DNA of 64,000 nucleotides, taken from the NCBI RefSeq assembly GCF_001677435.1, contig NZ_CP016268.1, positions 1,043,001 through 1,107,000 on the forward strand. Reading direction: 5' to 3'. This DNA is from Woeseia oceani. GTDB lineage: Bacteria; Pseudomonadota; Gammaproteobacteria; Steroidobacterales; Woeseiaceae. Under the pieces are notes generated by a model that saw nothing but the letters and a program-made list of their open reading frames with translations, was not told the origin of the DNA and did no database searches. Each line of letters starts with the position of its first letter. The stretch's first letter is position 1. Positions 29,799 to 54,161 of this stretch are shown in pieces. The position numbers and the translations under genes were made by a program.

Positions 29799-29920
29799 CA
29801 GGCGTTCCTCCGGGGTGTCAGGCAGCAAGCTTGGGGTTTCGAATTATCTGCAAATTAATAAAAATAGAGAAAATTCGGGGAAAAAGAGCTTATTAATACT
29901 TCATAATTTCTTTAGAATAA

Positions 29921-35711: not shown

Positions 35712-36763
35712 TTGCGTTGCCCGGTTAGCGCCGGGCTGAATACCATCAGACTCAATATTTCGAACAACAGTTGCGATCCTATGTGGGCCGTGTTCGTAGT
35801 TGCATCGTATTGCGGCGCGACTTCAACAACGTCACCACCGACGATATTCAGGCCCTTCAGACCGCGCAGTATTTGAATCGCTTCCCGGCTGCTCATGCCG
35901 CCGACTTCCGGCGTGCCCGTGCCTGGCGCGAAAGCCGGGTCCAGTGCATCGACGTCAAACGTGACGTACACGGGGCCGTCGCCAACAACTTCTCTCGCTT
36001 TCGCGATCACCGCGTCACAGCCCAATCGATTGATGTCTTCGATATGCATGACGGTCATGCCGGCATCTTCCGAGAACTCCCACAGGTATTCTGAGGAGCC
36101 GCGGATGCCTATCTGAATGGAGCGTGCGGGGTCGAGCACGCCGTCAAGCACGGCATTGCGAAATGGCCCGCCGTGGTGGAACTTCGAACCGTCGTATTCG
36201 CCGCCGGTATCGCAGTGCGCATCGAAGTGAATCATGCCGACTGGTTGGTCGCTGCCAAATGCGCGCAAAATCGGGTGCGTAACCGAGTGATCGCCACCGA
36301 CCGCGAGTGGGACTACACCGGCTTTTACGATCCGGGTGAAAAACGATTCAATGTCGTCGTGACAGCTGTCGAGAGAAAAGCGGCTGCGAAACGGTACGTC
36401 GCCGATGTCACCGACGCGTAAATCACTGACGGGCATGCAATCAAGCTCGTGGTTGTAAGGACCGATCCGCTCGATGGTGCGCATCGCTCGTGGTCCGAAA
36501 CGTGCGCCAGGGCGATTGCTTACGCCAAGGTCCATCGGTACGCCGACCAGGGCCACTTGCAGATTCTCGAAATTGTCACTGCTGGCTGCGCTAGGCATGT
36601 ACGGAGCGGACAACAGCGTCGAAATTCCAGCGTAAGGTGCGTTGCGCGTGCCTTCCGCATTAAAGAGTTGTTCGGACACTCTTTGGAATATGGGGTTGAG
36701 CTCCTTTTCGCTGTGGCCATCCGTGTACTTGGAACGTAGCCGATCCAGGTTCTTGCGATCCAT
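35708..36763 (-). CDS. gbuA: Guanidinobutyrase / agmatinase-type ureohydrolase
   Basis: This 351-residue ureohydrolase of the arginase family hydrolyses a guanidino compound to urea and an amine. The two-manganese site is complete: GGDHSVTHPIL (His), HFDAHCDTGGEYDG (D-x-H-x-D) and TFDVDALDPAFAPGTGTPEV (D-x-D). Length and sequence are closer to GbuA/GpuA than to arginase. Substrate is most likely 4-guanidinobutyrate, the product expected after AruI and an aldehyde dehydrogenase; agmatine or guanidinopropionate are alternatives. The start ATG 36763 has AAGGA 7 bases before it. It forms an operon with the exported amidohydrolase, and the SSS symporter lies 97 bases upstream on the same strand. 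Confidence 0.87.
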   Translation of the reverse strand: MDRKNLDRLRSKYTDGHSEKELNPIFQRVSEQLFNAEGTRNAPYAGISTLLSAPYMPSAASSDNFENLQVALVGVPMDLGVSNRPGARFGPRAMRTIERIGPYNHELDCMPVSDLRVGDIGDVPFRSRFSLDSCHDDIESFFTRIVKAGVVPLAVGGDHSVTHPILRAFGSDQPVGMIHFDAHCDTGGEYDGSKFHHGGPFRNAVLDGVLDPARSIQIGIRGSSEYLWEFSEDAGMTVMHIEDINRLGCDAVIAKAREVVGDGPVYVTFDVDALDPAFAPGTGTPEVGGMSSREAIQILRGLKGLNIVGGDVVEVAPQYDATTNTAHIGSQLLFEILSLMVFSPALTGQRK

Positions 36764-36860
36764 TCTGTGATCCTTGACTTGTCTCAATGCAGTCGGCGTT
36801 ACAGCCGATTCGAGTTCGTAGTGAAAGTTGCTTACTCAGCGCCTCTGGTAATACCTGCAC

Positions 36861-38240
36861 TCAGGCAGAGCTCTGTACTACCGCTGGGCGCTGCGTAAGC
36901 AGGCTGACAATGACGAAGCTCGCAAGGCCGATTGCGAGGCTGTAGTAAATGGGTGTGTTGGCATCGATACCATCGCGGAACATAAATATTGCAGCGGTTA
37001 TGAAGCCAAGTGACATGCTGGCCGTCGCGCCAGCCGGTGTCGCCGCACGCCAAAAAATCGCGCCGATCAGCGGAATCAACATGCCGCCAACCAACATGTT
37101 GTAAGCAAGGGCCAGCGCGCTTAGTACGTCATCGACAACCAGGGCTACCACGAGTACGAGGGCGCCCGTAAACATCGTGCCGATTCGGTTGATTCGCAAA
37201 CCGGACGGTTGGCCGCCGCGAAAACGCGGCAGCAGGTCTTCTGTGAAGGTGCTGGATGCGGCCAGCAATCCGGCGCTGGCCGTCGACATCATGGCGGCCA
37301 TTGCCGCAGCGATCACGATGCTGCGAACGCCTTCCGGCAAGCTGGTCTGAATTACGGCGGCGTAGGCGTTGTTGACGTCGTCGAGATCCGGCAGCAAGAC
37401 TCTGGCGCTCATGCCGATGACGGCGGCAGCAAGTCCGTAAAGTATGCAATACAGGCCCGACGCGCTGCCTGCATAGCGGGCAATCTTTGGGCTCCGGGCA
37501 GTAAACACGCGCTGCCAGATATCCTGGCCGATCAATACCCCGAATGTGTATATGAGAATGTAGGTAATGATGGTGTCAGTACCGATGGCCGTAAAGCTGA
37601 AAGCCGACTGCGGCAGTACCGCCATCAATTGATCCCAGCCACCGGCCTGGTTCAGCGACATCGGCAGCAACAGGAAAAACATGCCAACAGTGGCGATCAT
37701 GAACTGGACCATGTCCGTCAACGTCAACGCCCACATGCCGCCTATTGTTGAATAGATTACAACGATGCCACCGCTCAAGAGAATGGCCGACCACAAGGGC
37801 AGGCCGAGAAATACCTGCAGGATCGTGCCTATACCCAGCGTGGATACAACGCCGATCATCAGCGCGTAGGCAAACATGATGACGGCACTGAGTTGCCGCG
37901 TGATCGGGTTGTAGCGGCGTTCGAGTACCTGCGTTACCGTGAATATCCGCAGTTTCATCAGCGGTTCGGCGAGGAACAGGTTGAGCAGGACGATGCCTAT
38001 GCCCAAAGAAGCGCACAGCCAGACACCGGAGATACCGTGCACGTAGCCGAGACGCACGCCGCCGATGGTCGCGGCACCGCCCAATACAGTCGCGGCCATC
38101 GTACCCATGTATAATGACGGCCCAAGATTTCGGCCGGCGACAAGGTAGTCTTCTTGGGAGTCTGAACGGCGCATGCCGATCCAGCCTAATGTCAGCATTC
38201 CGGCCGCATACAGAACGATAACCACGATATCTACTAGCAT
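36861..38240 (-). CDS. Sodium:solute symporter (SSS family) upstream of gbuA
   Basis: This 459-residue inner-membrane SSS symporter has about 12-13 helices. Recognisable family stretches are EDYLVAGRNLGPSLYMGTMA, LGGAATIGGVRLGYVHG, YSTIGGMWALTLTDMVQF (sodium-site helix region) and AAAMAAMMSTASAGLLAASS. As first gene of the unit with gbuA and the amidohydrolase, it probably imports guanidinobutyrate, agmatine or a related solute. This is inferred only from the neighbourhood. It differs clearly from the SSS protein at 5961-7511. Confidence 0.9.
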   Translation of the reverse strand: MLVDIVVIVLYAAGMLTLGWIGMRRSDSQEDYLVAGRNLGPSLYMGTMAATVLGGAATIGGVRLGYVHGISGVWLCASLGIGIVLLNLFLAEPLMKLRIFTVTQVLERRYNPITRQLSAVIMFAYALMIGVVSTLGIGTILQVFLGLPLWSAILLSGGIVVIYSTIGGMWALTLTDMVQFMIATVGMFFLLLPMSLNQAGGWDQLMAVLPQSAFSFTAIGTDTIITYILIYTFGVLIGQDIWQRVFTARSPKIARYAGSASGLYCILYGLAAAVIGMSARVLLPDLDDVNNAYAAVIQTSLPEGVRSIVIAAAMAAMMSTASAGLLAASSTFTEDLLPRFRGGQPSGLRINRIGTMFTGALVLVVALVVDDVLSALALAYNMLVGGMLIPLIGAIFWRAATPAGATASMSLGFITAAIFMFRDGIDANTPIYYSLAIGLASFVIVSLLTQRPAVVQSSA

Positions 38241-38594: not shown

Positions 38595-41504
38595 ATGGTG
38601 ATTGAACGGACGGCGGCAACGCCTTTACTTACAGATGCTGCGCGCAAGGCGAGTCCAGTCGGGTCGATGACTCGCCTGCTGTCCGCTGTCGCAGTGTCGC
38701 TTGCGGTAGCAGCAGGCGGCAGCAGCGCAGCACTGGCACAGCAGCCCGCAGGCGCTGCTATAGAGGAAGTGGTCGTCACCGGCAGCCGCATCGTAAGGGA
38801 CGGCTATGATTCGCCAACCCCAACGACGGTCGTGGGCAGCGAACAGATTCAAAGTCAGGCGGCACCAAACCTGATTGATTACCTCACCAATCTGCCAAGT
38901 TTTGCCGGCAACTACACGCCGCAAAGCAGCAGCCAGAACGTCAGTTCAGGCGCGGCCGGCACAGCTTCAGTGAATCTTCGCAATCTGGGCACCAACCGGA
39001 CCCTGGTCCTGCTTGACGGGCAGCGTTCTGTGCCGTCAACCATTACTGGTCTGGTCGATGTCAACACAATTCCCCAGCAGCTGATCGAGCGCGTTGAAGT
39101 GGTAACCGGCGGTGCTTCTGCCGCTTACGGTTCAGACGCAGTCAGTGGTGTAGTCAACTTCATTCTTGATAAAGACTACGTTGGCTTTAAATCCGAATTG
39201 TCCGGCGGCATCACAAGCTACGGTGACAATGGCAACTTCAGTATCGCGATGACTGCGGGTACCGAGTTTGCGAATGGCCGTGGGCACCTTATTGTCAGCG
39301 GGCAGGAAAAGCGCCAGCACGGCGTCATCACCGGTGACCGTCCCTGGAACTTGCAGGGCTGGCAGATTATCAATAATCCGGACTACACGGATACGAATGG
39401 ACAGCCACGGCGTTTGCTGTTGTCAGAGATTGCGCCGTCGAATGCAACGCCCGGTGGCCTGATCGTTGACGGCCCGCTGCGCGGGGTTGCTTTCGGTGAA
39501 GGTGGAACGCCTTATCAGTTCCAGTTTGGTCCGTTAATTTCCGGCAGTGCCATGCAAGGCGGCGACTGGGAAGACAGTTCGCTGCACCTGGTTGGTCAGT
39601 CTATCGAGCCGCGCATTGGCAGCCGCAACCTGTTCGCCCGCGCCAGCTTTGCATTGACTGACGCGGCGGAAATTTACTTCCAGTCCAACTGGTACAAGAA
39701 CAGCAACTATTCGCACGCCTACCCGAATGACGGTTACTTCGGTGGCTTGATGATTCAGGCTGACAATCCGTTCATACCGGCCAGTGTTGCCGCGCAGATC
39801 GCGACGCTCGGCATTACCGAATTCGAAATGGGTCATTCATTGCGCGACATGGGTACCGTATCTATCGACACGGGCCGCGTCGTGACGCGCAACGTACTGG
39901 GCATTACCGGTGACTTCGACGCGTTCGGTTCCTCCTGGGGCTGGGATGCGTACTATCAGTACGGCGTTTCCGAAGGTTCCGAGTCCGCGTACAACTCGTC
40001 CAATCTGGTTGCTGTTGACGAAGCCATGGATTCGGTTATCGATCCGGACACCGGCGCCATTGTTTGCCGTTCAAGCCTGACCGATCCTGGCAATGGCTGC
40101 GTACCCTACAATCCGTTTGGTATCGGCGTGAACACGTCAGCTGCGCTTGACTACGTGGTCGGCGACGTATCGCATCGTGATCAGAAATTTGTTCAGGAAT
40201 CGGCCGGTGTCGCCGTACAAGGCGCGCCGTTCACGAACTGGGCTGGGGACGTATCGTTCGCAACCGGTCTGGAATACCGCAAGGAAAAATCATCGGGTGC
40301 TTCGACCGAGCTTGACCTGCAGCGCGTATTCTTCGCCGGCAACTACCGACCGACGTTTGGCGAATACGATGTTACCGAACTGTTCATGGAAACGATCGTA
40401 CCGCTGGCCGTTGACAGGTCCTGGGCACGCGCTCTCGACCTGAACGCTGCCGTTCGTTTCACCGACTACAGCACCTCGGGCTCCGTGGAGACGTGGAAAG
40501 CCGGTCTGACCTACATGCCGATCGATTCGCTGACATTGCGCACCACCGTGTCACGCGATATCCGCGCGCCGAACCTGAGTGACCTGTTCAACGCAGGACT
40601 CAGTGTTAACCAGAACGTCATCGATAATGCGACAGGCAACTCCGTAACCACCGAGAACATTACCGGCGGTAACACCGCACTGCGGCCTGAAATTGCTGAT
40701 TCCTTTGGTATTGGCCTCGTGTTCCAGCCTGAGTTCCTGCAGGGCTTCAGCGCTTCAGCTGACTACTGGGAAATTGACGTGTCCGACGCAATCAATACGG
40801 TTTCGGCACAGAACATCGTCGACCTTTGCTTCCAGGGGAACACAGACTTTTGTGCGGCCATCAACAATGGCAGCCCATTGCGGGAGACGACGGGCTCGGA
40901 TCGAAACACGATTCGCATTCAGCCTTTCAACCTGGCGCAACAGCTGGCCAGTGGCGTGGACCTCGAAGCCAGCTACGCGTTGCCGGCACAAGTCTTCGGC
41001 GGCGACATCGGCATGCGCTTCCTGGCGACACACTTCATCGAGAACTACCGCGATGACACGTTGACCCAGCCTACCGATACCGTTGGTGAGAACCGTGGCA
41101 GTGGTCCACCGGACTGGCGCTGGAATGCATCGCTTAACTTCAGTCGCGAAACCTTCTCGGCGACCTTGAACGCTCGCGGCGTCAGCGACGGCGTGTTCAG
41201 CAATACGCAGATTGAATGTGTATCGGGTTGCCCGGTTTCTACGATTGCGAACCCGACAATCAATGTGAATCACCTGTCCGGTGCTACTTACCTGGATTTG
41301 TCGTTGAGCAAGACCACCTACGCCGGTAGCGATAACGGCATTGAAGTGCAGTGGTTCCTGAACGTGAAGAATCTCGCGAACAAGGATCCGGTACTGGCAG
41401 TAGGTGGTCCGGGTGGTATTCCTTACGATACCGTTTCGACCAATGCGGCAAACTACGATACACAAGGCCGGGTATTCCGGGCTGGTGTTCGGGTGTCGCT
41501 GTAA
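38595..41504 (+). CDS. TonB-dependent outer-membrane receptor
   Basis: This complete 969-residue receptor has a long leader with a signal peptide ending near AALAQQ (residue 50). The TonB-box-like EEVVVTGSRI comes next. The plug domain follows (YLTNLPSFAG, LRNLGTNRTLVLLDGQR, VEVVTGGASAAYGSDAVSGV, NFILDKDYVG), then the beta barrel ending in RAGVRVSL. GGGGGA lies just before the ATG. The plug is of the type common in receptors for plant polymers, peptides or organic molecules rather than siderophores. It is a paralogue of the receptor at the window's left end. It precedes the secreted DUF1592/DUF1552 genes, with which it may share a transcript and substrate. Confidence 0.93.
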   Translation: MVIERTAATPLLTDAARKASPVGSMTRLLSAVAVSLAVAAGGSSAALAQQPAGAAIEEVVVTGSRIVRDGYDSPTPTTVVGSEQIQSQAAPNLIDYLTNLPSFAGNYTPQSSSQNVSSGAAGTASVNLRNLGTNRTLVLLDGQRSVPSTITGLVDVNTIPQQLIERVEVVTGGASAAYGSDAVSGVVNFILDKDYVGFKSELSGGITSYGDNGNFSIAMTAGTEFANGRGHLIVSGQEKRQHGVITGDRPWNLQGWQIINNPDYTDTNGQPRRLLLSEIAPSNATPGGLIVDGPLRGVAFGEGGTPYQFQFGPLISGSAMQGGDWEDSSLHLVGQSIEPRIGSRNLFARASFALTDAAEIYFQSNWYKNSNYSHAYPNDGYFGGLMIQADNPFIPASVAAQIATLGITEFEMGHSLRDMGTVSIDTGRVVTRNVLGITGDFDAFGSSWGWDAYYQYGVSEGSESAYNSSNLVAVDEAMDSVIDPDTGAIVCRSSLTDPGNGCVPYNPFGIGVNTSAALDYVVGDVSHRDQKFVQESAGVAVQGAPFTNWAGDVSFATGLEYRKEKSSGASTELDLQRVFFAGNYRPTFGEYDVTELFMETIVPLAVDRSWARALDLNAAVRFTDYSTSGSVETWKAGLTYMPIDSLTLRTTVSRDIRAPNLSDLFNAGLSVNQNVIDNATGNSVTTENITGGNTALRPEIADSFGIGLVFQPEFLQGFSASADYWEIDVSDAINTVSAQNIVDLCFQGNTDFCAAINNGSPLRETTGSDRNTIRIQPFNLAQQLASGVDLEASYALPAQVFGGDIGMRFLATHFIENYRDDTLTQPTDTVGENRGSGPPDWRWNASLNFSRETFSATLNARGVSDGVFSNTQIECVSGCPVSTIANPTINVNHLSGATYLDLSLSKTTYAGSDNGIEVQWFLNVKNLANKDPVLAVGGPGGIPYDTVSTNAANYDTQGRVFRAGVRVSL

Positions 41505-41714
41505 GTTATTGAATTGATTGGCTGTCTGGTGCAGCAAGGGGTTGCGCCAGACGGACCAGTCGAGGCCGGTCGCACGTTGCGATTTGTTTTTCTTCGCGTA
41601 GTATCAGCGAAGAATTTGGGCCAAAGATTAAGTGTGACAATCAGATTGTTTGTATCGGGCCGTTTTGCAACCCGACTTTCAGATCAAGGTCCATTCGAGC
41701 CGGGGGGCTCCAGC

Positions 41715-43466
41715 ATGCGCCAGTACGAAAACAAGACTCCATCCGGAACGGCAGAAGTCGCTGTTCCCGCTTTGGCCGACCAGCCCCGTCAGGGTGCCTT
41801 GGCCGGCTGGTTGGTAATGGCGGCTGCCACCTTGCTGACAGCCTGTGGAGGAAGCGAGCTGGCTGAACCGGAAAGTTCGGGCACACCGCTGCGCGTTCGC
41901 CTGATGACCGGCGAGCAGTTCTCCAACACGATGGCTGATATTTTCGGGGCGGATATCAGTAATGCCGTCCCCGCACCCTTGCCACCGCTGACGCGAACCG
42001 ATGGTCTGCTCGCGTCCGGCGCTGCGTCGGTCGGGTTGACCTCGGACCAGGCGCAGCAGTTGCAGCAAGCCGCAACGGCGATAGCCGCGAAAGTGGTGGA
42101 CAAGAAGCACCGCGATTTCCTGATTCCCTGTAAACCCGAATCACTGACCGAGCCGGACAATCTCTGCGCCACCGAGTTTCTGAAAGAAACGGGCCGGCTG
42201 CTGTACCGCCGCCCGCTCGATGAAATGCATGTGTCGGTGTTGGCGGACGTAGCGGCCGATGGCGCACTCCAGACGGATGACTTTTACGCGGGACTGGCCG
42301 TTGCACTGGAAGTCATGCTCATCAGTCCGGAAGTCATCTTTATCGTAGAGTCCTCCGAACCTGATCCCGACAATCCGGGGCAGGAACGTCTGGATGCATT
42401 TACGCTCGCGTCGCGCTTGAGCTTTTTCCTGTGGAATTCGGCGCCCGATGCGGAGTTGCTGGATGCTGCTGAGAACGGCGAACTCGATACGGAGGATGGT
42501 CTTGCCAGAACCGTGGAGCGCATGCTGTCCAGTTCGCGACTTGAAGACGGCCTGCGTGCATTCTTTGACGACATGATGGAATTCGACGACTTCGCGAGTC
42601 TGGCAAAAGACCCTGTCGTTTACCCAACGGTCACCGGTGCGACACTCGCTGATGCCCGCGAACAGACATTACGCACAGTGATCGACCATGTGCTGATACG
42701 CGATCTCGATTACCGCGACCTGTTTACGACGCGAAACACGTTCATGTCGATGAATCTCGCGGCAATATACGGTGTACCCACCAACAACGGATGGGTGCCC
42801 TATGAGTTTCCGGAGGACAGTAAGCGTGCGGGTTTGTTGACACAAGTCAGCTTCCTTGCCGCGCATTCGCACTCAGTGCGCAGTTCACCAACCTTGCGTG
42901 GCAAAGCACTGCGCGAGCTGTTTTTGTGCCAGGTTGTGCCGCCTCCGCCGCCCGATGTTGACTTTTCATTGCTGGAAGATGCCGGTGATGTAGCGACGGC
43001 CCGAGAGCGTATTGATATTCACACCACCAACCCATCGTGCGCTGGTTGTCATTTGATCACCGACCCGATTGGTCTGGCGTTGGAGAATTTTGACGGCGCC
43101 GGCAACTACCGGGAGAAAGAAAATAATGTCGTGATCGACACGACCGGAGTGCTGGACGGCGTCAATTACGGTGATCCGGACGGTCTCGCGGTTGCGTTGC
43201 GTGACCATGAAAAGTTGCCGACCTGCCTGGTCAATCGCGCGTACGCCTACGGTACTGGTGGTCCGGTGGACATGCGCAGTGACCGCGAGGTTCTCGAATT
43301 CTTTGAAGCACGTTTTGTCGAACAAGGTTACAAAGTGAAAGACCTGTTGCGCGACATTGCAACGAGTCAGGTGTTCAAACAGGTACGCCCCGGTAACCGC
43401 TCAGAAGCTGTTGTCGCCAGTGCGAGCAGCATTGTGCAGTCGCACCTTGCCCGTACCCCGAACTAG
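41715..43466 (+). CDS. DUF1587/1595/1592/1588/1585 haem-type lipoprotein
   Basis: This 583-residue secreted protein has all five planctomycete-type domains in order: DUF1587 (LMTGEQFSNTMADIFG), DUF1595 (LYRRPLDEMHVSVL), DUF1592 (FTLASRLSFFLWNSAPDAEL), DUF1588 (RAGLLTQVSFLAAHSHSVRS, then CQVVPPPPP) and DUF1585 (CAGCHLITDPIGLALENFDG). The CAGCH site should bind one c-type haem. A lipobox LLTAC ends at Cys44. The start ATG 41715 is chosen because the longer frame to 41514 has no signal-like or conserved sequence. In many marine bacteria it is paired with a DUF1552 protein, as here. The biochemical role of the pair is not established. Confidence 0.87.
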   Translation: MRQYENKTPSGTAEVAVPALADQPRQGALAGWLVMAAATLLTACGGSELAEPESSGTPLRVRLMTGEQFSNTMADIFGADISNAVPAPLPPLTRTDGLLASGAASVGLTSDQAQQLQQAATAIAAKVVDKKHRDFLIPCKPESLTEPDNLCATEFLKETGRLLYRRPLDEMHVSVLADVAADGALQTDDFYAGLAVALEVMLISPEVIFIVESSEPDPDNPGQERLDAFTLASRLSFFLWNSAPDAELLDAAENGELDTEDGLARTVERMLSSSRLEDGLRAFFDDMMEFDDFASLAKDPVVYPTVTGATLADAREQTLRTVIDHVLIRDLDYRDLFTTRNTFMSMNLAAIYGVPTNNGWVPYEFPEDSKRAGLLTQVSFLAAHSHSVRSSPTLRGKALRELFLCQVVPPPPPDVDFSLLEDAGDVATARERIDIHTTNPSCAGCHLITDPIGLALENFDGAGNYREKENNVVIDTTGVLDGVNYGDPDGLAVALRDHEKLPTCLVNRAYAYGTGGPVDMRSDREVLEFFEARFVEQGYKVKDLLRDIATSQVFKQVRPGNRSEAVVASASSIVQSHLARTPN

Positions 43467-43489
43467 ATTGAGGACAAGGAGGTAGTCGA

Positions 43490-44824
43490 ATGAAAAAGCT
43501 GAACAGACGTCGGGTTTTGAAAGGAATGGTGAACGGCACGGCAGTCACCATCGGCCTTCCGCTCCTTAATTGCTTTCTGAACGACAACGGCACCGCGCTG
43601 GCATCCGGCGCGCCGATACCGACCCGATTCGGCACCTGGTCCTGGGGACTGGGCATGAATAAAGAGATCTTCGTGCCGAAGACCACCGGGACGAATTACG
43701 AACTGCCGCCAGAAGTGGCTGCGCTGAAGCCGGTTCAACAGCACATCAACATGTTTACCAACTACCATGTGTTCAAAGATGCGGCACCGAATCTTTGTCA
43801 CCACACGGGCTGGGTAATCCTGCGGTCCGGTATCGCACCGTTAACGAGTGCGAACCGGCCGGGCGAAACCATTGACGTTACTGTCGCCAAGAAGATTGGC
43901 AACAGCACGCGTTTCCGTATTCTGAGTGCGACCGCGACGGGCGACGTGCGGGACAGCTTCAGCTACGAAAACGGCAATTCTGTTAACGCTCCGGAGTGGT
44001 CGCCATTGCGGTTCTACGAACGCCTGTTTGGCGGCGACTTTCAGGACCCGAATGGTGCGGAGTTCAAACCCGACCCACGCGTACTTGTCCGCAAGAGCGC
44101 GCTGTCACACGTGTTGGAAGAAACCCGCAAGCTGAGCAAGGAACTGGGTACCGAAGACCGTGCACGGCTGGACCAGTACTTTACCGGCCTGCGTGACCTG
44201 GAACGTCGCTTCGACCTGCAATTGACCAAGCCGGATCCGCGTGAAGCGTGTGTGGTAAGCCCGCGGCCTGAAGACCTGCCTACCGGTCTCGACGCCGATC
44301 TCGTTGCCAAGCGTCACCGCATGATGACCGATCTGATGCTAATGGCGGTGGCTTGCGATCAAACGCGGGTCTTCAACATGTTTTATGCCGCCGCGTTCTC
44401 GGCGACCACGAAGCCCGGCTATGACAAGCCGCATCACACTGCCACTCATGAAGAAGCGGTGGTCGAAGAAGAACATTGCCAGCCGAACGTCTCGTGGTAC
44501 ACGCGCCGCGCGATGGAAGAGTGGTCGTACTACGTTCAGTCGCTGGCTAACTTCAAAGAAGGCGACGGCACGATGCTGGACAACGTTTTTGTCTATGCAT
44601 CGACGGATCAGTCGTTTGCCAAGATTCATTCCATCGAAGGTATACCGATGTTCAGTGCGGGTCGTGCCGGTGGCCGTATCAAGTCGGGAATGCATCTGGA
44701 CGGTGGCACAAGTCCGGGTACACGACTGGGCTATACGGCACTGCGACTCATGGGCGTTGATGTACCGTCCTGGGGTGATCAGAGCAACAAAACGTCCAAT
44801 GAGATCAGCGAGATCCTCGCCTGA
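43490..44824 (+). CDS. DUF1552 protein with Tat-type leader
   Basis: This 444-residue DUF1552 protein begins with a twin-arginine-like leader (KKLNRRRVLKGM, hydrophobic to about residue 38), which suggests export of a folded, cofactor-bearing protein. Family blocks are FGTWSWGLGMNKEIFVPK, MFTNYHVF, CHHTGWVILRSG and THEEAVVEEEHCQPNVSWYT, and FVYASTDQSFAKIHSIEGIP. The family is loosely related to the DUF1501/alkaline-phosphatase-like fold in some classifications. The gene follows the DUF1592 gene by 23 bases with a very strong AAGGAGG site. The two are almost certainly one functional unit at the cell envelope; the substrate is unknown. Confidence 0.88.
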   Translation: MKKLNRRRVLKGMVNGTAVTIGLPLLNCFLNDNGTALASGAPIPTRFGTWSWGLGMNKEIFVPKTTGTNYELPPEVAALKPVQQHINMFTNYHVFKDAAPNLCHHTGWVILRSGIAPLTSANRPGETIDVTVAKKIGNSTRFRILSATATGDVRDSFSYENGNSVNAPEWSPLRFYERLFGGDFQDPNGAEFKPDPRVLVRKSALSHVLEETRKLSKELGTEDRARLDQYFTGLRDLERRFDLQLTKPDPREACVVSPRPEDLPTGLDADLVAKRHRMMTDLMLMAVACDQTRVFNMFYAAAFSATTKPGYDKPHHTATHEEAVVEEEHCQPNVSWYTRRAMEEWSYYVQSLANFKEGDGTMLDNVFVYASTDQSFAKIHSIEGIPMFSAGRAGGRIKSGMHLDGGTSPGTRLGYTALRLMGVDVPSWGDQSNKTSNEISEILA

Positions 44825-44855
44825 CGGCATAAGCTATTCGATTTGTCCGCACGCC

Positions 44856-44882
44856 CCGGCGCGCTCCTGGTAGCGGCGCCGG
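44856..44882 (+). other. Intercistronic hairpin
   Basis: CCGGCGC (44856-44862) and GCGCCGG (44876-44882) can pair with a 13-base loop between the DUF1552 gene and the next gene. No T run follows, so it is more likely a processing or mRNA-stability element than a terminator. Confidence 0.35.
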
Positions 44883-44910
44883 TTGCGTGTTGATGGATCC
44901 GGGAATTCAT

Positions 44911-46314
44911 ATGTTTGCGAACGAAAACAGGTGCCATACGCGTGCCGGCTGCCTAACGACGATGCTCACAGCGTGCACCGCTGTGCTGATGTTTGCACTG
45001 TCACCGCTGTCACTGGCTGACCATCATCTGGCTGGCGAATCCGCCATGCTGGAAGCCTACGTTGACGAACCGATGCCCGCCGGCTTTCGTGTTGAACACA
45101 CGGAAACAGAAGGCCCGGTCTTCGCCGACGAGCAAGGGCGAACCTTGTACAAGTGGCCATTGTCGCGTTTGCGCAATGGCTACAGTGGTGAGGCTCCGGG
45201 CAAACCCGGCTGCTACGACGAAGTACTGACGGTGACGGCGGGTTTGATGAGCCCTTACCCCCCGGGCGTCACACTGCCGGACCTGGATACTCGCCCAAGT
45301 TGCACTGACTTGTGGCCACCGGTATTTGCCGCGGATGATGCAGAAGACATTGGCGAATGGACGATTCTCGAGCGCAAAGACGGGTCCCGGCAATGGGCCT
45401 ACGACGAGCAGCCCCTGTATACGTCCGTTCTCGATGTTGAGCCGGGCGATGTTTACGGCGGTTCAACACGGCGTAGCGGCGGAGATTCTCCGGCGGTACG
45501 GGTGCCGATCAAACCCAGTCCCGAAGTTCCGCCGGGGTTTGACGTGCGCACGACAACCATTGGCCGTATGTTGACCACGGACAAGAACGAGTCGATCTAC
45601 GCGAACGAGGGTGATACGGCTGACAGTACCGTCTGCGATCACGAATGCGCGCAGGTCTGGAATCCGGTGATCGCGCCGTCAATGGCCAGACCGTTGGGGG
45701 ACTGGACCACGTTTGAACGTTCGCCAGGTTTGTTTCAGTGGGTGTACCGGGGCAAGCCTCTCTACACCTATGCCCGGGACTCTGGCTCCTGGAGCCAGTT
45801 GGGCAGCGACGAGCCAGGCTGGTCGAATGTCTTTACGCAGCACACGCCAGAGCCTCCGGCGAGCTTTACGGTTCAGGAGACGCTGGTTGGCCAGGTGCTC
45901 GCTGATCGCCGGGGTATGAGTATATACACTTACATATGTGGCGATGATTCGATGGACCAGTTGAGTTGTGATCACCCCAGCGACACACAAGTCTACCGAC
46001 TTGCGATGTGCGGTGGCGGCGACATCGAGAAATGCCTGCTGCACTGGCCGTACGTCGAAGCGGGTGCCAGCGAAACCAGCGATAATCGAACCTGGAAGAT
46101 TGCCCTTATCGACCCACAGACCGGCCGTTACGCCAGCGAGGGGCAGGAAGGCGCGCTGCGAGTATGGACATACCGGGACCGACCGGTTTACACCTATGGC
46201 GGTGACGAGAAACCCGGCGACCTGAACGGTGCCGGGACAGGCGAATGGCGCGGTCAGCGAAACGGCCTCAAGGCATTCTTTGTAAGAGATGACTACTTCA
46301 GGGGGATACTCTGA
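44911..46314 (+). CDS. Secreted protein with three COG4315-like (Yx(FWY)xxD) repeats
   Basis: This exported protein of about 467 residues (hydrophobic leader ending near SLADHH) contains three tandem units of the type seen in small lipoproteins of COG4315. Each unit has a D-x-x-G-x-x-[LI]-Y start (ADEQGRTLYKW; TDKNESIYANEGD; ADRRGMSIYTYICGDD), then cysteines and W-x-P/W-N-P, then G-D-W or equivalent, and closes with W-x-Y-x-x-x-P-[LV]-Y-T (QWAYDEQPLYTS; QWVYRGKPLYTYARD; RVWTYRDRPVYTYGGD). Cysteine pairs suggest disulphides. ATG 44911, six bases after GGGA, is preferred over earlier in-frame starts. Fourth in line after the TonB receptor and the DUF1592/DUF1552 pair, it is probably part of that envelope system. 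Confidence 0.8.
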   Translation: MFANENRCHTRAGCLTTMLTACTAVLMFALSPLSLADHHLAGESAMLEAYVDEPMPAGFRVEHTETEGPVFADEQGRTLYKWPLSRLRNGYSGEAPGKPGCYDEVLTVTAGLMSPYPPGVTLPDLDTRPSCTDLWPPVFAADDAEDIGEWTILERKDGSRQWAYDEQPLYTSVLDVEPGDVYGGSTRRSGGDSPAVRVPIKPSPEVPPGFDVRTTTIGRMLTTDKNESIYANEGDTADSTVCDHECAQVWNPVIAPSMARPLGDWTTFERSPGLFQWVYRGKPLYTYARDSGSWSQLGSDEPGWSNVFTQHTPEPPASFTVQETLVGQVLADRRGMSIYTYICGDDSMDQLSCDHPSDTQVYRLAMCGGGDIEKCLLHWPYVEAGASETSDNRTWKIALIDPQTGRYASEGQEGALRVWTYRDRPVYTYGGDEKPGDLNGAGTGEWRGQRNGLKAFFVRDDYFRGIL

Positions 46315-47531
46315 TGGCGAAAGATACGAACAACGGTAGTTTGGCTGCGCTGATGCCGCGTAATCGTGCTGGATCGCGTAGTGTGCTCGCGGCAGTGGGC
46401 TGCGCTGCGCTGGGACTCTTGTTCAGTTCTGTCAGTATGGCGCAGGAGAATGCGGCACCGCCCAACGGCACTATTGGCTTCGCCTTGACGGACTTGTTCT
46501 GGTCGGTCTATCAAACACCGAATGCCAAAGAAGAATGCCCGCAAGGCTTCAATGACGGGCCGCGGGAACAGTACGACATACTGTACCCGGATCCGGCCAA
46601 GCGGACCGTGGTCAATACGCGCCTGGCCCGTGAAATTGAAACCTGGCACCCGACCACGGAGCCCGAAGACTTTGTGTTCCACTCGGCATCAGGTCCGTAT
46701 TCCTACGGACTGAATCTGGACGGCAAAGTTGACGAAAACGACTACCAGCACCCAAACGGCGAACAAGGCATCGACAACCAGGTGTATCGCGCCGTTGGTT
46801 GCATCATCGGTTTTCGTGGTCCGGACGGTGTCGAGTACATTTTCCAGAACAAGGCGATCACAGACGCCGTTTACAACCGGACGATGTTCGAGTTGACCGG
46901 CGTCGATGACCTGCAGAACGATGACCACGTCGTAATGACGATTTATCGCGGCATGGATAAGTTGCTGACTGATGCAACTGGCGACAAGGTGATTGCGGGT
47001 GGATCGCAGCGAATCGATACCCGCTGGGGGCGGCGTCTCATCCAGCAGACCACTGGCAAGATTGTTGACGGTGTTCTGACGACCGAGCCAGTGGCAGAGA
47101 TGCTCATTCCGTGGATGAACCTGGGCGTACCGACATTCCAGTTGATTCGGGACATGCGGGTGCAGTTCAACCTGACGCCAACGGGTGCTACAGGCGTCAT
47201 TGCCGGCTATGCGGATGTTGATACCTACTACAAGCAGTTGATTCGTAATGATTCAACGCACCATCTCAGCAACGGCCAGATTTCCGGTGTGTCTTTGTAC
47301 AAGGCACTACGCCGCTTTGCGGATGCCTATCCGGATCAGAATACGGGTGAAAACACCGCAATCTCGACCTCACTGGATGCGAAGCTGACTCAGGTCTATA
47401 TTGTTCACCCGGACGGCGATGAAGCGAAAGCGGCTTTGCTGCAGGAGGTCAGGAACGGCAGTCTGTCAGCGTCAGCGACGGGTGCAGAGGTCCTCAAGGG
47501 CGAACGCACCAGCGGTTCGGATTCACGATAG
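46314..47531 (+). CDS. Secreted hypothetical protein, DUF1592-operon member
   Basis: I do not recognise this 405-residue protein. The ATG overlaps the TGA of the repeat protein (TGATG), with GGGGGA nearby, so translation is coupled. A signal peptide ends near residue 43 (SVSMAQ). Visible features are an EF-hand-like loop LDGKVDENDY at 135-144 within SYGLNLDGKVDENDYQHPNG, a CxxGF block, and GVPTFQLIRDMRVQFNL near the C-terminus. It has no haem motif. It is the last gene before a strong hairpin and probably works with the three preceding secreted proteins. Confidence 0.72.
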   Translation: MAKDTNNGSLAALMPRNRAGSRSVLAAVGCAALGLLFSSVSMAQENAAPPNGTIGFALTDLFWSVYQTPNAKEECPQGFNDGPREQYDILYPDPAKRTVVNTRLAREIETWHPTTEPEDFVFHSASGPYSYGLNLDGKVDENDYQHPNGEQGIDNQVYRAVGCIIGFRGPDGVEYIFQNKAITDAVYNRTMFELTGVDDLQNDDHVVMTIYRGMDKLLTDATGDKVIAGGSQRIDTRWGRRLIQQTTGKIVDGVLTTEPVAEMLIPWMNLGVPTFQLIRDMRVQFNLTPTGATGVIAGYADVDTYYKQLIRNDSTHHLSNGQISGVSLYKALRRFADAYPDQNTGENTAISTSLDAKLTQVYIVHPDGDEAKAALLQEVRNGSLSASATGAEVLKGERTSGSDSR

Positions 47532-47585: not shown

Positions 47586-47643
47586 CCCGTTCCCGAGCTT
47601 GACCGGCTGGCCCGCTCATGCTCGGGAACGGGCTATTTTCACG
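47586..47643 (+). terminator. Strong hairpin between the secreted operon and gabT
   Basis: CCCGTTCCCGAGC (47586-47598) pairs perfectly with GCTCGGGAACGGG (47620-47632), giving 13 base pairs and a 21-base loop, followed by CTATTTTC. It ends the secreted operon and lies 22 bases before the gabT start, so it may also affect gabT expression. Confidence 0.7.
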
Positions 47644-47653
47644 GAATATCATC

Positions 47654-48958
47654 ATGCAAGAACTTGCCAAAAAAGAATCAACGGGCGCGACTTTACTGGA
47701 GCGTCGCAGCAATGCAGTCGCACACGGTGTAGCGACCGCAACGCCGTTTTTTGCCGATACGGCCGAGAACGCGGAAATCCATGATACCGAAGGGCGACGC
47801 TATATCGACTTTGCGAGTGGCATCGGCGTGCTTGCGACGGGTCATCGTCATCCCCGGATCATGGAAGCGGTTCAGCAGCAGCTCGGACGCTTCAGTCATA
47901 CCGCTTTCCAGGTCATGGCTTACGAGTCTTACGTGGAACTGGCGGAGCGCCTGAATGCGATCGCACCCATAGCGGGTCCGGCAAAAACTGCCCTGTTTAC
48001 GAGTGGCGCAGAGGCTGTTGAGAATGCAGTCAAAATCGCTCGCTGCGCGACCGGCCGGCCCGCGGTAATCGCGTTTGGCGGAGCCTTTCACGGCCGGACG
48101 ATGATGACCTCGGGATTGACCGGCAAAGCGGTACCGTACAAGGCCATGACCGGCCCGGTTTCGCCTGAGATTTTCCGTGTACCGTTTCCTGTCGAGCACC
48201 GGGGAATCAAGCTGGAAGACACACTCGCCGCCGTGCAATCGCTGTTCAAGTGCGACGTTGACCCGTCACGGGTTGCAGCAATCATCATCGAGCCGGTACA
48301 GGGTGAAGGCGGCTTCCACGTCGCGTCGACTGAGCTGATGCAGGCTTTGCGCGCTGTTTGCGACCAGCACGGCATTTTGCTGATCGCCGATGAAGTGCAA
48401 TCCGGCTTCGGGCGTACCGGCAAGGTGTTTGCAATCGAACACACCGGCGTCAAGCCGGACATGATTACCGTGGCCAAATCCCTCGCCGGTGGCTTTCCGT
48501 TGTCAGGCGTGATTGGCCGTGCCGAAGTCATTGATTCAGTGCCGCCTGGCGGACTCGGTGGCACCTATGGCGGCTCACCCATAGGCTGCGCAGCAGCGCT
48601 CGCGGTGCTCGACGTTATCGAAGAGGAAAAACTGCTGGAGCGTGCCGAAGCTATTGGCCAGAGCATCCGTTCCAAGCTGGCTCCTCTGATGCAGACAGGC
48701 AGCGGCGCGAATATCGCCAACTTGCGCGGCCAGGGCGCCATGCTGGCGTTCGATATCGTCAAGCCATCGACAACTTACGAACCGGACGCGGAGCGTGCAA
48801 AACGTATCGTTGCCAACGCGCTGTCCAACGGCCTGATTGTTCTGACCTGCGGAACGTACGGTGACACAGTGCGTATCCTGACGCCTTTGACAATCGCAGA
48901 CGAAATGCTTGAACAGGGCATGGATATTCTTGTAGCGTCTATTCGGGCCTGCGAGTAG
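47654..48958 (+). CDS. gabT: 4-aminobutyrate aminotransferase
   Basis: This 434-residue class III PLP aminotransferase transfers the amino group of GABA to 2-oxoglutarate, giving succinate semialdehyde. Motifs: FASGIGVLATGHRHPRI, FTSGAEAVENAVKIAR, FGGAFHGRTMMTSGLTGK, EPVQGEGGF, LLIADEVQSGFGRTGK, and the Schiff-base lysine in ITVAKSLAGGFPLSGVIG. The sequence is typical of GabT rather than ornithine or acetylornithine enzymes. ATG 47654 gives the usual N-terminus. Together with gabD 700 bases downstream and gbuA upstream it completes conversion of guanidinobutyrate to succinate semialdehyde. Confidence 0.92.
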   Translation: MQELAKKESTGATLLERRSNAVAHGVATATPFFADTAENAEIHDTEGRRYIDFASGIGVLATGHRHPRIMEAVQQQLGRFSHTAFQVMAYESYVELAERLNAIAPIAGPAKTALFTSGAEAVENAVKIARCATGRPAVIAFGGAFHGRTMMTSGLTGKAVPYKAMTGPVSPEIFRVPFPVEHRGIKLEDTLAAVQSLFKCDVDPSRVAAIIIEPVQGEGGFHVASTELMQALRAVCDQHGILLIADEVQSGFGRTGKVFAIEHTGVKPDMITVAKSLAGGFPLSGVIGRAEVIDSVPPGGLGGTYGGSPIGCAAALAVLDVIEEEKLLERAEAIGQSIRSKLAPLMQTGSGANIANLRGQGAMLAFDIVKPSTTYEPDAERAKRIVANALSNGLIVLTCGTYGDTVRILTPLTIADEMLEQGMDILVASIRACE

Positions 48959-49015
48959 CTGTTTGCGACTGGCCGTGGCTTAACCCTATTAGGTATGACT
49001 GGAGTTACTACAACA

Positions 49016-49423
49016 ATGAATTTACCAAAAAGCTTCGCTGCCAGTGCGGTAGCGGCGGTCCTGATGGCCGCTTTATCGGCTTGCGGATCCGCTCCGAAAG
49101 GCGATGTTGCCCACGGCGCAGAGCTCTACGCTCAATGTTCTGCTTGTCATGCAATGCAGGAAAATAATCTTGGCCCGGCACACTGCGGCCTGTTCGGGCG
49201 CAAAGCGGGTACGGTACCCGGCTTTGGCTATTCCAGCGCCATGCGCGAATCCGGTATCGTCTGGGATGAAAAGATCCTCAGTGAATTCCTGGTTTCACCG
49301 TTTTCCTATTTGCCAGGGACCGTTATGGGTTTTGCCGGTTTTCCGAATGAGCAGGACCGTCTTGACGTGATTGCGTATATGAAGCAGCAGACCAGCGACC
49401 CGTCAGTTTGCCCGACAAGCTGA
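49016..49423 (+). CDS. Small class I cytochrome c lipoprotein
   Basis: This 135-residue monohaem cytochrome c has a lipoprotein leader with lipobox LSAC (Cys23), so it is membrane-anchored in the periplasm. The haem site is CSACH at about residues 41-45, and a distal Met is likely in PGTVMGFAGF. The central GPAHCGLFGRKAGTVPGFGY is typical of cytochrome c2/c550-like proteins, with Cys in place of the more usual Leu or Asn. ATG 49016 is preferred to ATG 48995, whose upstream AGG is too close. It lies between gabT and gabD, ends in a perfect terminator, and probably carries electrons for an envelope dehydrogenase. Confidence 0.87.
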   Translation: MNLPKSFAASAVAAVLMAALSACGSAPKGDVAHGAELYAQCSACHAMQENNLGPAHCGLFGRKAGTVPGFGYSSAMRESGIVWDEKILSEFLVSPFSYLPGTVMGFAGFPNEQDRLDVIAYMKQQTSDPSVCPTS

Positions 49424-49661: not shown

Positions 49662-51128
49662 GTGAACATCAGCAACCTCGACGACAAACAACTGTTCCAG
49701 ACCCGCGCATTCATAAACGGTGAATGGCAGGATGCTGACGATGGCTCGAGCTACAACGTCGATAACCCGGCAACCGGTGAGAGGATTGCGGACGTTGCTC
49801 GTTGCGGCGCTGGCGAAACCAGGCGCGCAATAGACGCTGCCAATGCCGCTTTGCCAGCCTGGCGGGCGAAGCCGGCCAAACAGCGGGCGGCACTGCTCCG
49901 GCGCCTGTTCGATCTGATGATGGCCGCGCAGGAAGATCTTGCGCAAATCATGACGGCTGAGCAGGGCAAGCCCATTGCTGAATCCCGCGGAGAGATCGCG
50001 TATGGCGCCAGTTATATCGAATGGTTTGCGGAAGAGGCCAAGCGCGTGTACGGCGACACCATACCGGCACCGGACAATGACAAACGCATCGTCGTCGTTC
50101 GTCAGCCTGTCGGTGTAGTAGCCTGCATCACACCGTGGAATTTTCCGAACGCGATGCTGGCTCGCAAGATTGCGCCCGCGTTGGCGGCGGGTTGCACGGT
50201 GGTCTGCAAGCCCGCCAACGAGACACCGTTGTCGGCAAATGCATTCGCAGAACTCACTCGTCGCGCCGGTATTCCGGCTGGCGTCGTGAACGTAGTGAGC
50301 GGCCAGACGGCCGATATAGGCAAAGAACTGACCGGCAACCCCATTGTTCGCAAGCTGACCTTCACCGGTTCTACACCGGTCGGCAAATTTCTTACCGCCG
50401 AATGTGCGAAAACCATGAAACGTACCTCCATGGAGCTGGGTGGGAACGCGCCTTTCATCGTGTTTGACGATGCCGACCTGGACAGTGCGGTCGCAGGGGC
50501 TATTGCCAGCAAGTTCCGCAATGCGGGTCAAACCTGCGTTTGTGCCAACAGAATACTTGTGCAGGATGGCATCTACGATGAGTTCATCGAGAAATTGGCC
50601 GCTGCAACGCGTGAATTGAAAGTGGGTCTGGGCTCGGAAGCAGGTATCGATATCGGCCCATTGATCAACGCCAAGGCTGCGAACAATGTCGTGTCGTTGA
50701 TAGACGATGCCAAAGAGCACGGTGCGAGAGTGGTGATTGGCGGCGGTTACGCTTCGGCAGGCCAAAACTTCGTGCAGCCGACAGTATTGAGCAACGTCAA
50801 CCAGAAAATGCGCGTATTCCACGAAGAAATATTCGGACCGGTCGCGCCGGTATTCCGTTTTACCTCAGAAGACGATGCCATCCGCATGGCGAACGATACG
50901 CCGTTTGGTCTGGCCTGTTATTTCTTTTCCCGCGACATTGGCCGGGTCTGGCGCGTTAGTGAGGCGTTGGAATACGGCATCGTCGGGATCAACACCGGAA
51001 TGACCACCAGCGAAACAGCCCCTTTCGGTGGCATCAAGGAGTCGGGCCAGGGACGTGAAGGCTCTAAATACGGCCTGGATGACTACCTTGAGATCAAATA
51101 CCTTTGCATGGGTGGCATCAGTCACTGA
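49662..51128 (+). CDS. gabD: Succinate-semialdehyde dehydrogenase (NAD(P)+)
   Basis: This 488-residue aldehyde dehydrogenase is of the GabD type and oxidises succinate semialdehyde to succinate. The NAD-fold signature is CITPWNFPNAMLARKIAP and KLTFTGSTPVGK. The catalytic Glu lies in MELGGNAPFIVFDDADLD and the catalytic Cys in FRNAGQTCVCANR. The C-terminal PFGGIKESGQGREGSKYGLD, then DYLEIKYLC, is characteristic of GabD. It begins with GTG at 49662, with TGGAG 6-7 bases upstream. It could also oxidise 4-guanidinobutyraldehyde (the KauB step), since no other aldehyde dehydrogenase is present here. It has its own promoter, after the terminator at 49430-49463. Confidence 0.92.
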   Translation: MNISNLDDKQLFQTRAFINGEWQDADDGSSYNVDNPATGERIADVARCGAGETRRAIDAANAALPAWRAKPAKQRAALLRRLFDLMMAAQEDLAQIMTAEQGKPIAESRGEIAYGASYIEWFAEEAKRVYGDTIPAPDNDKRIVVVRQPVGVVACITPWNFPNAMLARKIAPALAAGCTVVCKPANETPLSANAFAELTRRAGIPAGVVNVVSGQTADIGKELTGNPIVRKLTFTGSTPVGKFLTAECAKTMKRTSMELGGNAPFIVFDDADLDSAVAGAIASKFRNAGQTCVCANRILVQDGIYDEFIEKLAAATRELKVGLGSEAGIDIGPLINAKAANNVVSLIDDAKEHGARVVIGGGYASAGQNFVQPTVLSNVNQKMRVFHEEIFGPVAPVFRFTSEDDAIRMANDTPFGLACYFFSRDIGRVWRVSEALEYGIVGINTGMTTSETAPFGGIKESGQGREGSKYGLDDYLEIKYLCMGGISH

Positions 51129-53735: not shown

Positions 53736-54161
53736 CCGAGGGACTCCGTAGTCTGACTTAGGTCGAAATTAGTGATAGTAACTGCTTATTCTGGCCGCTG
53801 TGCGCGGTTTTAAGTACTTTTTTCGTCGGGCGGGCCGCTGTTTCCGGTACAACATTTTGCTTGTCCTGCTCGTGAAACCGTATGTACATAGAGGTAACCC
53901 GATTTGCGAGGATCGGCTGCGTTGCGCCATGCTGAAACGGTAATTTGAAAAATGCGATTTTGCTCTATACTGACGCACGCTGAAATCCGACCCGCCTGTC
54001 ACTGTAAAAGCCCAATCGGCTCAGTTGACATGGTTGGGCTGCCGGCTGCCGGCGCACGGTCTGAACAAGAACAACCTTGATCCTCGCGCAGTATTGCGCT
54101 GAGATGATGGTAGCAGTCACTTCGTATTCTTACAGCCTTGGCTTCTAACAATGGATGGCAA
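53736..54161. promoter_or_regulatory. Divergent intergenic region with sigma70-like promoter
   Basis: This 426-base region lies between the divergent glutamine synthetase and VanX-like genes. On the plus strand TTGAAA (53945-53950) and TATACT (53966-53971) form a sigma70-like promoter with a slightly short 15-base spacer, leaving a leader of about 185 bases before the VanX-like gene. No small gene is recognised in the leader. Confidence 0.45.

What the first reader, a model, noticed from the sequence alone, without database searches (positions are those of the whole stretch)
38595..47531. TonB receptor followed by a four-gene secreted operon of unknown purpose
Receptor, DUF1592-type haem lipoprotein, Tat-exported DUF1552 protein, triple-repeat protein and an unknown exported protein lie in one direction, ending at a strong hairpin. 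DUF1592/DUF1552 pairs recur in environmental bacteria, but their function is not established. The linked receptor and the haem motif point to envelope redox processing of an imported compound. The two extra proteins may be dedicated partners.
Basis: partly seen in the sequence, partly recalled or inferred. Interest (0 to 1): 0.65.

Follow-up and report, generated by a model that had tools for sequence, protein, structure and literature searches.

The report
Recurring secreted redox gene module
Four exported proteins of unknown function form a fixed gene set that recurs in marine bacteria next to known electron-carrier genes, so they are probably parts of an unrecognised enzyme that oxidises nutrients outside the inner membrane and feeds the electrons to respiration.

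Summary
Receptor (38595-41504), one-haem DUF1592 lipoprotein (41715-43466), Tat-type DUF1552 protein, triple Lipoprotein_15 protein and a protein of no known family (P5) lie in line and end at a 13-bp perfect hairpin (47586-47632). The set recurs: four copies in this genome, each with a receptor nearby, and, as far as contigs reach, the same order in ten other Woeseiaceae genomes. A related set without the repeat protein lies in another class. The link is one-way, though: canonical DUF1592/DUF1552 pairs in seven sister loci lack P5 and the repeat protein. The DUF1552 here is a divergent subfamily (HTxTHE, not HxxSHH).

It lies upstream of DUF1592 in 8 of 8 testable relatives' loci; its window orthologue is at 31504-32736, beside a 2-ketoarginine decarboxylase gene. 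Four loci carry a HiPIP-type gene. Best reading (0.5): a periplasmic dehydrogenase passing electrons to the quinone/cytochrome pool, with the receptor a local addition. Catalytic subunit, electron direction and substrate are not shown; structure predictions failed.

The parts
38595..41504 (+). TonB-dependent receptor, 969 aa; a paralogue lies near each of the other three copies of the set (40-46% identical)
41715..43466 (+). DUF1592-type lipoprotein, 583 aa, one CxxCH (CAGCH), lipobox LLTAC; likely start ATG 41715
43490..44824 (+). DUF1552 variant with twin-arginine start, motif HTATHE in place of HxxSHH
44887..46314 (+). Triple Lipoprotein_15 repeat protein with signal peptide (read by eye)
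46314..47531 (+). P5: exported protein of no known family, two invariant cysteines (C75, C163)
47586..47632 (+). 13-bp perfect inverted repeat closing the unit, short T-run
31504..32736 (+). Tri-haem cytochrome c, homologue of fructose/glucose/alcohol dehydrogenase cytochrome subunits; orthologue of the gene upstream of DUF1592 in relatives
32789..34390 (+). 5-guanidino-2-oxopentanoate (2-ketoarginine) decarboxylase family (AruI), 52 nt after the tri-haem cytochrome
35708..36787 (-). Agmatinase/guanidinobutyrase-type ureohydrolase (context gene)
36861..38240 (-). Sodium:solute symporter (context gene, candidate inner-membrane uptake)
47651..48958 (+). GABA aminotransferase (context gene; ORF opens at 47618 inside the hairpin, likely start 47651)
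48995..49423 (+). Cytochrome c550-like protein (context gene; 88 bits, below the curated cut-off of 240)
49662..51128 (+). Succinate-semialdehyde dehydrogenase (context gene)

Best explanation
The four secreted proteins are the specific subunits of a periplasmic (lipoprotein-tethered) oxidoreductase. It oxidises a small substrate and hands electrons through the one-haem DUF1592 lipoprotein to a tri-haem dehydrogenase-type cytochrome, and so to quinone or an oxidase. In this genome each copy has its own TonB receptor, bringing a substrate through the outer membrane. In the window the product probably enters the arginine/guanidino route (symporter, AruI, ureohydrolase, GabT, SSADH). Shown: gene set, copies, order, congruent trees, cytochrome and HiPIP neighbours, motif change. 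Inferred: complex formation, electron direction, DUF1552 (with P5) as catalytic part, the nitrogenous substrate.
For: Four complete copies in one genome; 4 of 4 DUF1592 and 4 of 4 DUF1552 genes of the genome (E <= 0.001) are in them. Tri-haem cytochrome gene upstream of DUF1592, same strand, in 8 of 8 relatives' loci that reach that far (gaps -17 to 164 nt in seven, 491 nt in L038); 485 nt downstream of P5 in another family (L120); fourth gene after P5 in the row of own copy 4; and in the window at 31504. It matches the fructose dehydrogenase cytochrome subunit at 1.1e-78. Trees of the four proteins and the cytochrome agree (3-8 shared splits per pair, 0.14-0.27 with shuffled labels); with outgroups removed all five separate type A from type B cassettes, a paralogue split. 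HiPIP-type genes in four loci, three over the Pfam cut-off; cytochrome c' in L119. AruI starts 52 nt after the cytochrome gene.
Against: No catalytic cofactor site is known to me in DUF1552, P5 or Lipoprotein_15. Both structure predictions failed (mean pLDDT 28.0 and 30.8). No tri-haem homologue lies near own copies 1 and 2, and none was seen in the 19 kb of L119. In L038 a quinoprotein dehydrogenase gene precedes HiPIP and cytochrome, and in L037 a GMC oxidoreductase gene lies near the set; these could be the cytochrome's true partners there. AruI is in 1 of 101 family genomes at E <= 1e-100, so the arginine link is local. Flanks differ between loci. Tree agreement partly reflects shared species history.
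Confidence: 0.5

Rival explanations
1. Electrons flow the other way: the DUF1592 cytochrome, fed from the quinone pool through the tri-haem cytochrome, reduces an extracellular or periplasmic oxidase or monooxygenase-like partner, as proposed for Cellvibrio Cbp2D and lytic polysaccharide monooxygenases.
For: A cytochrome domain (X183) of Cbp2D can reduce such an enzyme in vitro (PMC8981238, abstract, section 5 and passages). Cbp2D also has an X132 domain with a CxxCH and a DUF1587 annotation, which looks like the DUF1592 block (my inference). cbp2D is important for growth on insoluble cellulose (PMC12542752, passages). In L031 the gene before the tri-haem cytochrome encodes a large protein with a Laminin_G_3 domain, counted among carbohydrate-binding modules in PMC5615132.
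Against: The tri-haem partner belongs to a family whose best solved matches are dehydrogenase subunits. No carbohydrate-binding module or such monooxygenase was recognised among 38 window proteins scanned. Three Teredinibacter X183 domains did not feed such an enzyme (PMC10916295, passages).
Confidence: 0.2
2. The cytochrome and HiPIP serve classical dehydrogenases nearby; the four proteins are an envelope or binding module that merely shares neighbourhoods with them.
For: A PQQ-type gene lies before HiPIP and cytochrome in L038, and a GMC gene near the set in L037. Own copies 1 and 2 have no tri-haem gene near.
Against: In 7 of the 8 testable relatives' loci the cytochrome gene lies 164 nt or less from DUF1592 (in L031 it overlaps). 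Among the flank proteins of those loci that were scanned (none from L028, only some elsewhere) no GMC or PQQ subunit was found. Trees agree.
Confidence: 0.15
3. Iron or haem acquisition: the receptor imports an iron chelate and the cytochromes reduce it.
For: Receptor plus cytochromes; weak similarity to siderophore, haem and B12 receptors.
Against: All 23 receptor models listed are far below their cut-offs. Relatives keep the set without such a receptor. Many neighbours are catabolic.
Confidence: 0.05
4. The window copy specifically oxidises arginine, agmatine or another guanidino compound in the periplasm, replacing the arginine transaminase step (a special case of the best explanation).
For: AruI (838 bits, cut-off 500), agmatinase, GabT and SSADH families over cut-off around the set; no arginine-transaminase-type gene other than GabT among 38 window proteins scanned; creatininase-like protein at 28908-29828 with homologues beside own copy 1 and in L030.
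Against: AruI in 1 of 101 family genomes at E <= 1e-100; orthologous sets elsewhere lie among other genes; some window genes and the rest of the genome were not searched for a transaminase; GabT could act promiscuously.
Confidence: 0.2

Closest known systems
DUF1592/PSCyt3 with DUF1552 pairs, described as planctomycete-specific cytochrome genes in Verrucomicrobia (PMC5615132)
   Same: Same Pfam families; that paper reports PSCyt3-encoding genes usually next to one family of unknown genes and no known function (section 13 read).
   Different: Here one haem motif instead of two or three, HTxTHE instead of HxxSHH, plus the repeat protein, P5 and a tri-haem cytochrome. Canonical sets in sister genomes have a third gene that encodes an ankyrin protein in the four cases scanned.
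Membrane-bound fructose, glucose and alcohol dehydrogenases with a cytochrome subunit
   Same: The tri-haem cytochrome is homologous and is the neighbour in relatives.
   Different: No GMC, quinoprotein or molybdenum catalytic subunit was recognised among the window proteins scanned, nor in most relatives' flanks scanned (exceptions L037, L038).
Cbp2D of Cellvibrio japonicus and TERTU_3803/2913 (CAZy X132 domain)
   Same: X132 has one CxxCH and a small annotated domain before it (DUF1587 for Cbp2D; printed DUF1687 for TERTU); I infer it is the DUF1592 block. A Cellvibrio protein listed with CBM2 is named DUF1592 domain-containing (PMC6004670).
   Different: Those are large fusions with X183 and other domains; here the block is a lone lipoprotein in a different gene set.
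SCO0930-type Lipoprotein_15 proteins
   Same: Same repeat family.
   Different: 74 bits against a curated cut-off of 275; three repeats.

Membership tests
DUF1592 (PSD4) cytochrome family | Pfam PSD4, PSCyt3, PSD5 and PSD2 over the curated cut-offs | tested here: met
   113, 99.4, 52.5 and 35 bits against 23.3, 27, 34.2 and 25.8
DUF1592 (PSD4) cytochrome family | Two or more haem motifs, as in the canonical sets of the same bacterial family | tested here: not met
   One CxxCH in all 12 full-length cassette members; two in eight and three in one of nine canonical members in L085-L090 and L092; one in the cut-off member of the odd locus L084
DUF1552 (HXXSHH) | Pfam HXXSHH over cut-off | tested here: met
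   161.3 bits against 30
DUF1552 (HXXSHH) | HxxSHH-type motif with a final His | tested here: not met
   HTxTHE in 8 of 8 cassette members, HxxSHH or HxxTHH in 8 of 8 canonical members; the odd L084 has HPLGHD. Window HTATHE; HxxTHE in L119 and L120
Lipoprotein_15 | Pfam PF03640 over cut-off | tested here: met
   103.9 bits against 24.4
SCO0930 lipoprotein equivalog | NCBIfam cut-off | tested here: not met
   74 bits against 275
FDH/ADH-type membrane dehydrogenase complex | Tri-haem cytochrome subunit | tested here: met
   1.1e-78 to 7w2j_C, three CxxCH; in the window about 9 kb from DUF1592
FDH/ADH-type membrane dehydrogenase complex | GMC, quinoprotein or Mo catalytic subunit beside it | tested here: not met
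   None among 38 window proteins scanned, some window genes unscanned; present near the set in L037 and L038 among flank proteins scanned
FDH/ADH-type membrane dehydrogenase complex | Substrate-dependent electron transfer to quinone | not testable with these tools
   needs protein
Arginine transaminase / guanidinobutyrate pathway | AruI, ureohydrolase, GabT and SSADH families over cut-off | tested here: met
   838/500 (NF005712), 208/174 (TIGR01230), 581/507 (TIGR00700), 695/646 (TIGR01780) bits
Arginine transaminase / guanidinobutyrate pathway | Arginine transaminase (AruH) present | tested here: inconclusive
   None among 38 window proteins scanned; rest of the genome not searched
HiPIP family (neighbour genes in four loci, not in the window) | Pfam HIPIP over cut-off | tested here: met
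   L027 33.9, L121 27.2, L038 25.8 against 22; L119 below at 19.6

The most novel reading that the evidence does not exclude
A class of respiratory periplasmic dehydrogenase not seen before. Its catalytic part is neither flavoprotein, quinoprotein nor molybdenum enzyme but a DUF1552 variant with P5 and, in most sets, the triple Lipoprotein_15 protein. It uses the same kind of tri-haem cytochrome as fructose and alcohol dehydrogenases and is multiplied in one genome with a different receptor for each substrate.
Probability: 0.3. Interest if true: 0.82.

Novelty: new variant of a known kind. Interest (0 to 1): 0.6.

Why it matters
DUF1592/DUF1552-type genes are frequent in some environmental bacteria (PMC5615132), yet the passages I read give them no function. 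This locus gives them recurrent partners of known kind (tri-haem dehydrogenase cytochrome, HiPIP), a compact four-gene version, a diagnostic motif change and, if the genome is that of cultured Woeseia oceani as its size suggests, a bacterium in which to delete them. That makes an open question directly testable and bears on how an abundant marine-sediment group feeds.

Tried and rejected
No fold search was run on them. Solved-structure profile searches for P5, repeat protein, DUF1552 and DUF1592 gave nothing credible (best E 0.95, none, 0.021, none).

Rows dropped. Weak P5 matches in G394, G406 (contig C8), G450 and G371 (E 2e-4 to 8e-4): the match covers 75-89 residues of a tandem-gene family unlike the set (I recall it as PilT/PilU-like, not scanned). 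Lipoprotein_15 profile matches in 9 other class genomes, each under a quarter of the profile, were not pursued. Of five HiPIP-pattern matches the one in L091 was taken as chance; L111 is the same place as L119.

General arginine link rejected: AruI in 1 of 101 family genomes at E <= 1e-100. Iron uptake considered, little support. One search used a DUF1592 query one base out of frame; its DUF1592 rows are void and were replaced. In some searches my ORF filter hid DUF1552 of L120 (recovered) and that of L089. The shuffle control does not remove shared species history; the A/B paralogue split does not depend on it. The paper search was swamped by an unrelated yeast gene; one search found nothing.
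Full report
WHAT IS THERE. The 15 members of its alignment gave only scattered weak Pfam hits at E up to 1, best 0.0092. The DUF1592 protein most likely starts at ATG 41715, with a lipobox and one CAGCH haem motif. DUF1552 has a twin-arginine start; P5 and the repeat protein have signal peptides (read by eye). Gaps are 210, 23, 62 and -1 nt. A perfect 13-bp hairpin closes the unit (47586-47632).

A MODULE, NOT A CHANCE ROW. The window lies in a one-contig genome of 4,059,891 bases. P5 occurs four times there; each copy follows DUF1592, DUF1552 and the repeat protein in the same order, with a receptor of the same kind 210 to 2386 nt away. All 4 DUF1592 and all 4 DUF1552 genes found in the genome belong to these sets. 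Of the repeat family one further open frame of 160 residues exists, at 869 kb. The family is Woeseiaceae: locus L005 is named so, and a same-family genome holds a contig of the same length with mirrored matches. One paper gives the closed genome of Woeseia oceani XK5 as 4.1 Mb (PMC7082342, passages read); that this is that genome is likely, not shown.

DISTRIBUTION. Family: 14 of 101 genomes gave P5 matches. Three of these have only weak, spurious matches (a fourth has one as a second match), leaving 11 genomes, own included. The 11 loci of the other ten keep DUF1592-DUF1552-repeat-P5 in order as far as the contig reaches. A further genome, G400, has DUF1592-DUF1552-repeat and then the contig ends. 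Order: 7 of 177 genomes, two of them outside the family, G928 and G847. Class: 1 of 369 (own only). Phylum: 2 of 398, own and G531 of another class. Samples are even draws, so rarity outside the order is only indicated. A full-length repeat protein was found in 1 of 369 class genomes; 9 others had partial matches.

OUTSIDE THE FAMILY. L120 (G928) has DUF1592-DUF1552-repeat-P5 and then the tri-haem cytochrome. L119 (G531, another class) has a HiPIP-like gene, P5, DUF1592, DUF1552 (HxxTHE), cytochrome c', a glyoxalase-family protein and a TonB receptor, but no repeat protein or tri-haem gene was seen in 19 kb. L121 (G847) is cut inside P5, so DUF1592 and DUF1552 cannot be tested there; near it lie HiPIP, tri-haem cytochrome, a receptor, a symporter and a flavin amine oxidase. 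So P5 + DUF1592 + variant DUF1552 is the core (17 of 17 strong P5 loci that can be tested for DUF1552: 4 own, 11 in the family, L119, L120); repeat protein, receptor and carriers vary.

TWO SUBFAMILIES. In the family sample 36 DUF1552 matches fall into a high-scoring group (20, 249-322 bits), the cassette group (15, 140-163 bits) and one odd gene at 70 bits. In an alignment of eight of each, the motif is HxxSHH or HxxTHH in the first and HTxTHE in the second. None of seven fetched loci of the first group holds P5 or the repeat protein: the co-occurrence is one-way. Those loci pair DUF1552 with DUF1592 proteins of two or three haem motifs, and the four third-gene products scanned are ankyrin proteins.

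THE ELECTRON CARRIER. In 8 of 8 relatives' loci whose contig reaches beyond DUF1592 (L028, L029, L030, L031, L033, L035, L036, L038; the other three of the 11 end before) the next gene upstream on that strand encodes a tri-haem cytochrome. The window protein of this family is homologous to cytochrome subunits of fructose dehydrogenase (1.1e-78), glucose dehydrogenase and alcohol dehydrogenase. The own genome holds two close homologues (615 and 475 bits): one at window 31504-32736, 52 nt before the AruI gene, and one in the row of copy 4 after receptor, metallo-beta-lactamase-fold protein and HiPIP. None lies near own copies 1 and 2. Trees of P5, repeat protein, DUF1552, DUF1592 and the cytochrome share 3 to 8 splits per pair (mean with shuffled labels 0.14-0.27; at most 4 of 2000 shuffles reach the observed number). 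With L119-L121 removed each tree separates type A (window and the seven relatives' loci in the trees) from type B (own copies 1, 2, 4 and L038; for the cytochrome copy 4 and L038). Some branches within the trees are weak, above all in P5. One genome, G379, has both types. Even in the window, where it is about 6 kb from the receptor and 9 kb from DUF1592, the cytochrome is of type A like its set.

HIPIP. A small Tat-type lipoprotein with a HiPIP cysteine pattern occurs in four loci: copy 4, L038, L119, L121. Pfam accepts three; L119 is just below cut-off. None was found in the window by the same pattern.

CONTEXT AND SUBSTRATE. Around the window set lie AruI, an agmatinase-family ureohydrolase, a symporter, GABA aminotransferase, a cytochrome c and succinate-semialdehyde dehydrogenase, steps of the arginine transamination network in PMC7268258 (passages read). 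Other loci have flavin amine oxidases with a GcvT-like protein, FAD amino-acid-oxidase-type proteins, hydantoinase A, class IV aminotransferase and a creatininase-like protein, but also PQQ and GMC dehydrogenases and, in L031, a protein with a Laminin_G_3 domain. Nitrogenous substrates are a lead, not a result; AruI was found in this genome alone in the family sample.

HOW IT MAY WORK. Shown: a co-inherited set of exported proteins near electron carriers. Inferred: substrate enters through the receptor, is oxidised by the DUF1552/P5 part, electrons pass DUF1592 to tri-haem cytochrome (or HiPIP) to the respiratory chain; product goes in by the symporter. Invariant residues suited to metal binding in DUF1552 include H104, D290, H316, H320, E321, D373 and H380 (14 sequences); that they form a site is a guess.

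LITERATURE (open-licence PubMed Central only). Four papers hold DUF1592 or DUF1552; the passages read of three assign no function, and PMC2754498 was seen in the listing only. Of 13 papers on the related DUFs I opened three (PMC5615132, PMC7789669, PMC8981238). The 15 Woeseiaceae papers listed of 49 hold no DUF1592. The nearest experimental work concerns Cbp2D of Cellvibrio japonicus, whose X132 domain I take to be the DUF1592 block; PMC10916295 says X132 has no characterised homologues. No paper describing this set turned up.

VERDICT.

Noticed in passing
28908-29828 (-): Creatininase-family protein with a signal-like start; homologues lie between receptor and DUF1592 of own copy 1 (62% identical) and after P5 in L030 (43%). 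Possible further partner.
   Followed up: partly
L085, L086, L087, L088, L090, L092: Canonical two- or three-haem DUF1592 + DUF1552 sets in sister genomes; the four third genes scanned encode ankyrin proteins; G428 has five DUF1552 genes.
   Followed up: partly
L029, L031, L035, L036, L037: FAD amine-oxidase-type genes (first four loci) and a GcvT-like gene cluster (all five) recur within about 9 kb of the set (Pfam on one of each).
   Followed up: no
L033 14179-15318; L036 15526-16629: CCP/MauG-type di-haem peroxidase genes near the tri-haem cytochrome, in L036 directly beside it.
   Followed up: no
L121 4153-5796: Gluconolactonase-like (PF08450) beta-propeller protein near P5; TERTU_3803 of Teredinibacter also joins a pf08450 domain to X132 and X183 (PMC10916295).
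   Followed up: no
54138-54857 (+): VanX-type D-Ala-D-Ala dipeptidase relative, 242 bits, below the curated cut-off of 320.
   Followed up: no
47618-47651: The downstream GabT ORF opens inside the closing hairpin; the real start is probably ATG 47651.
   Followed up: partly
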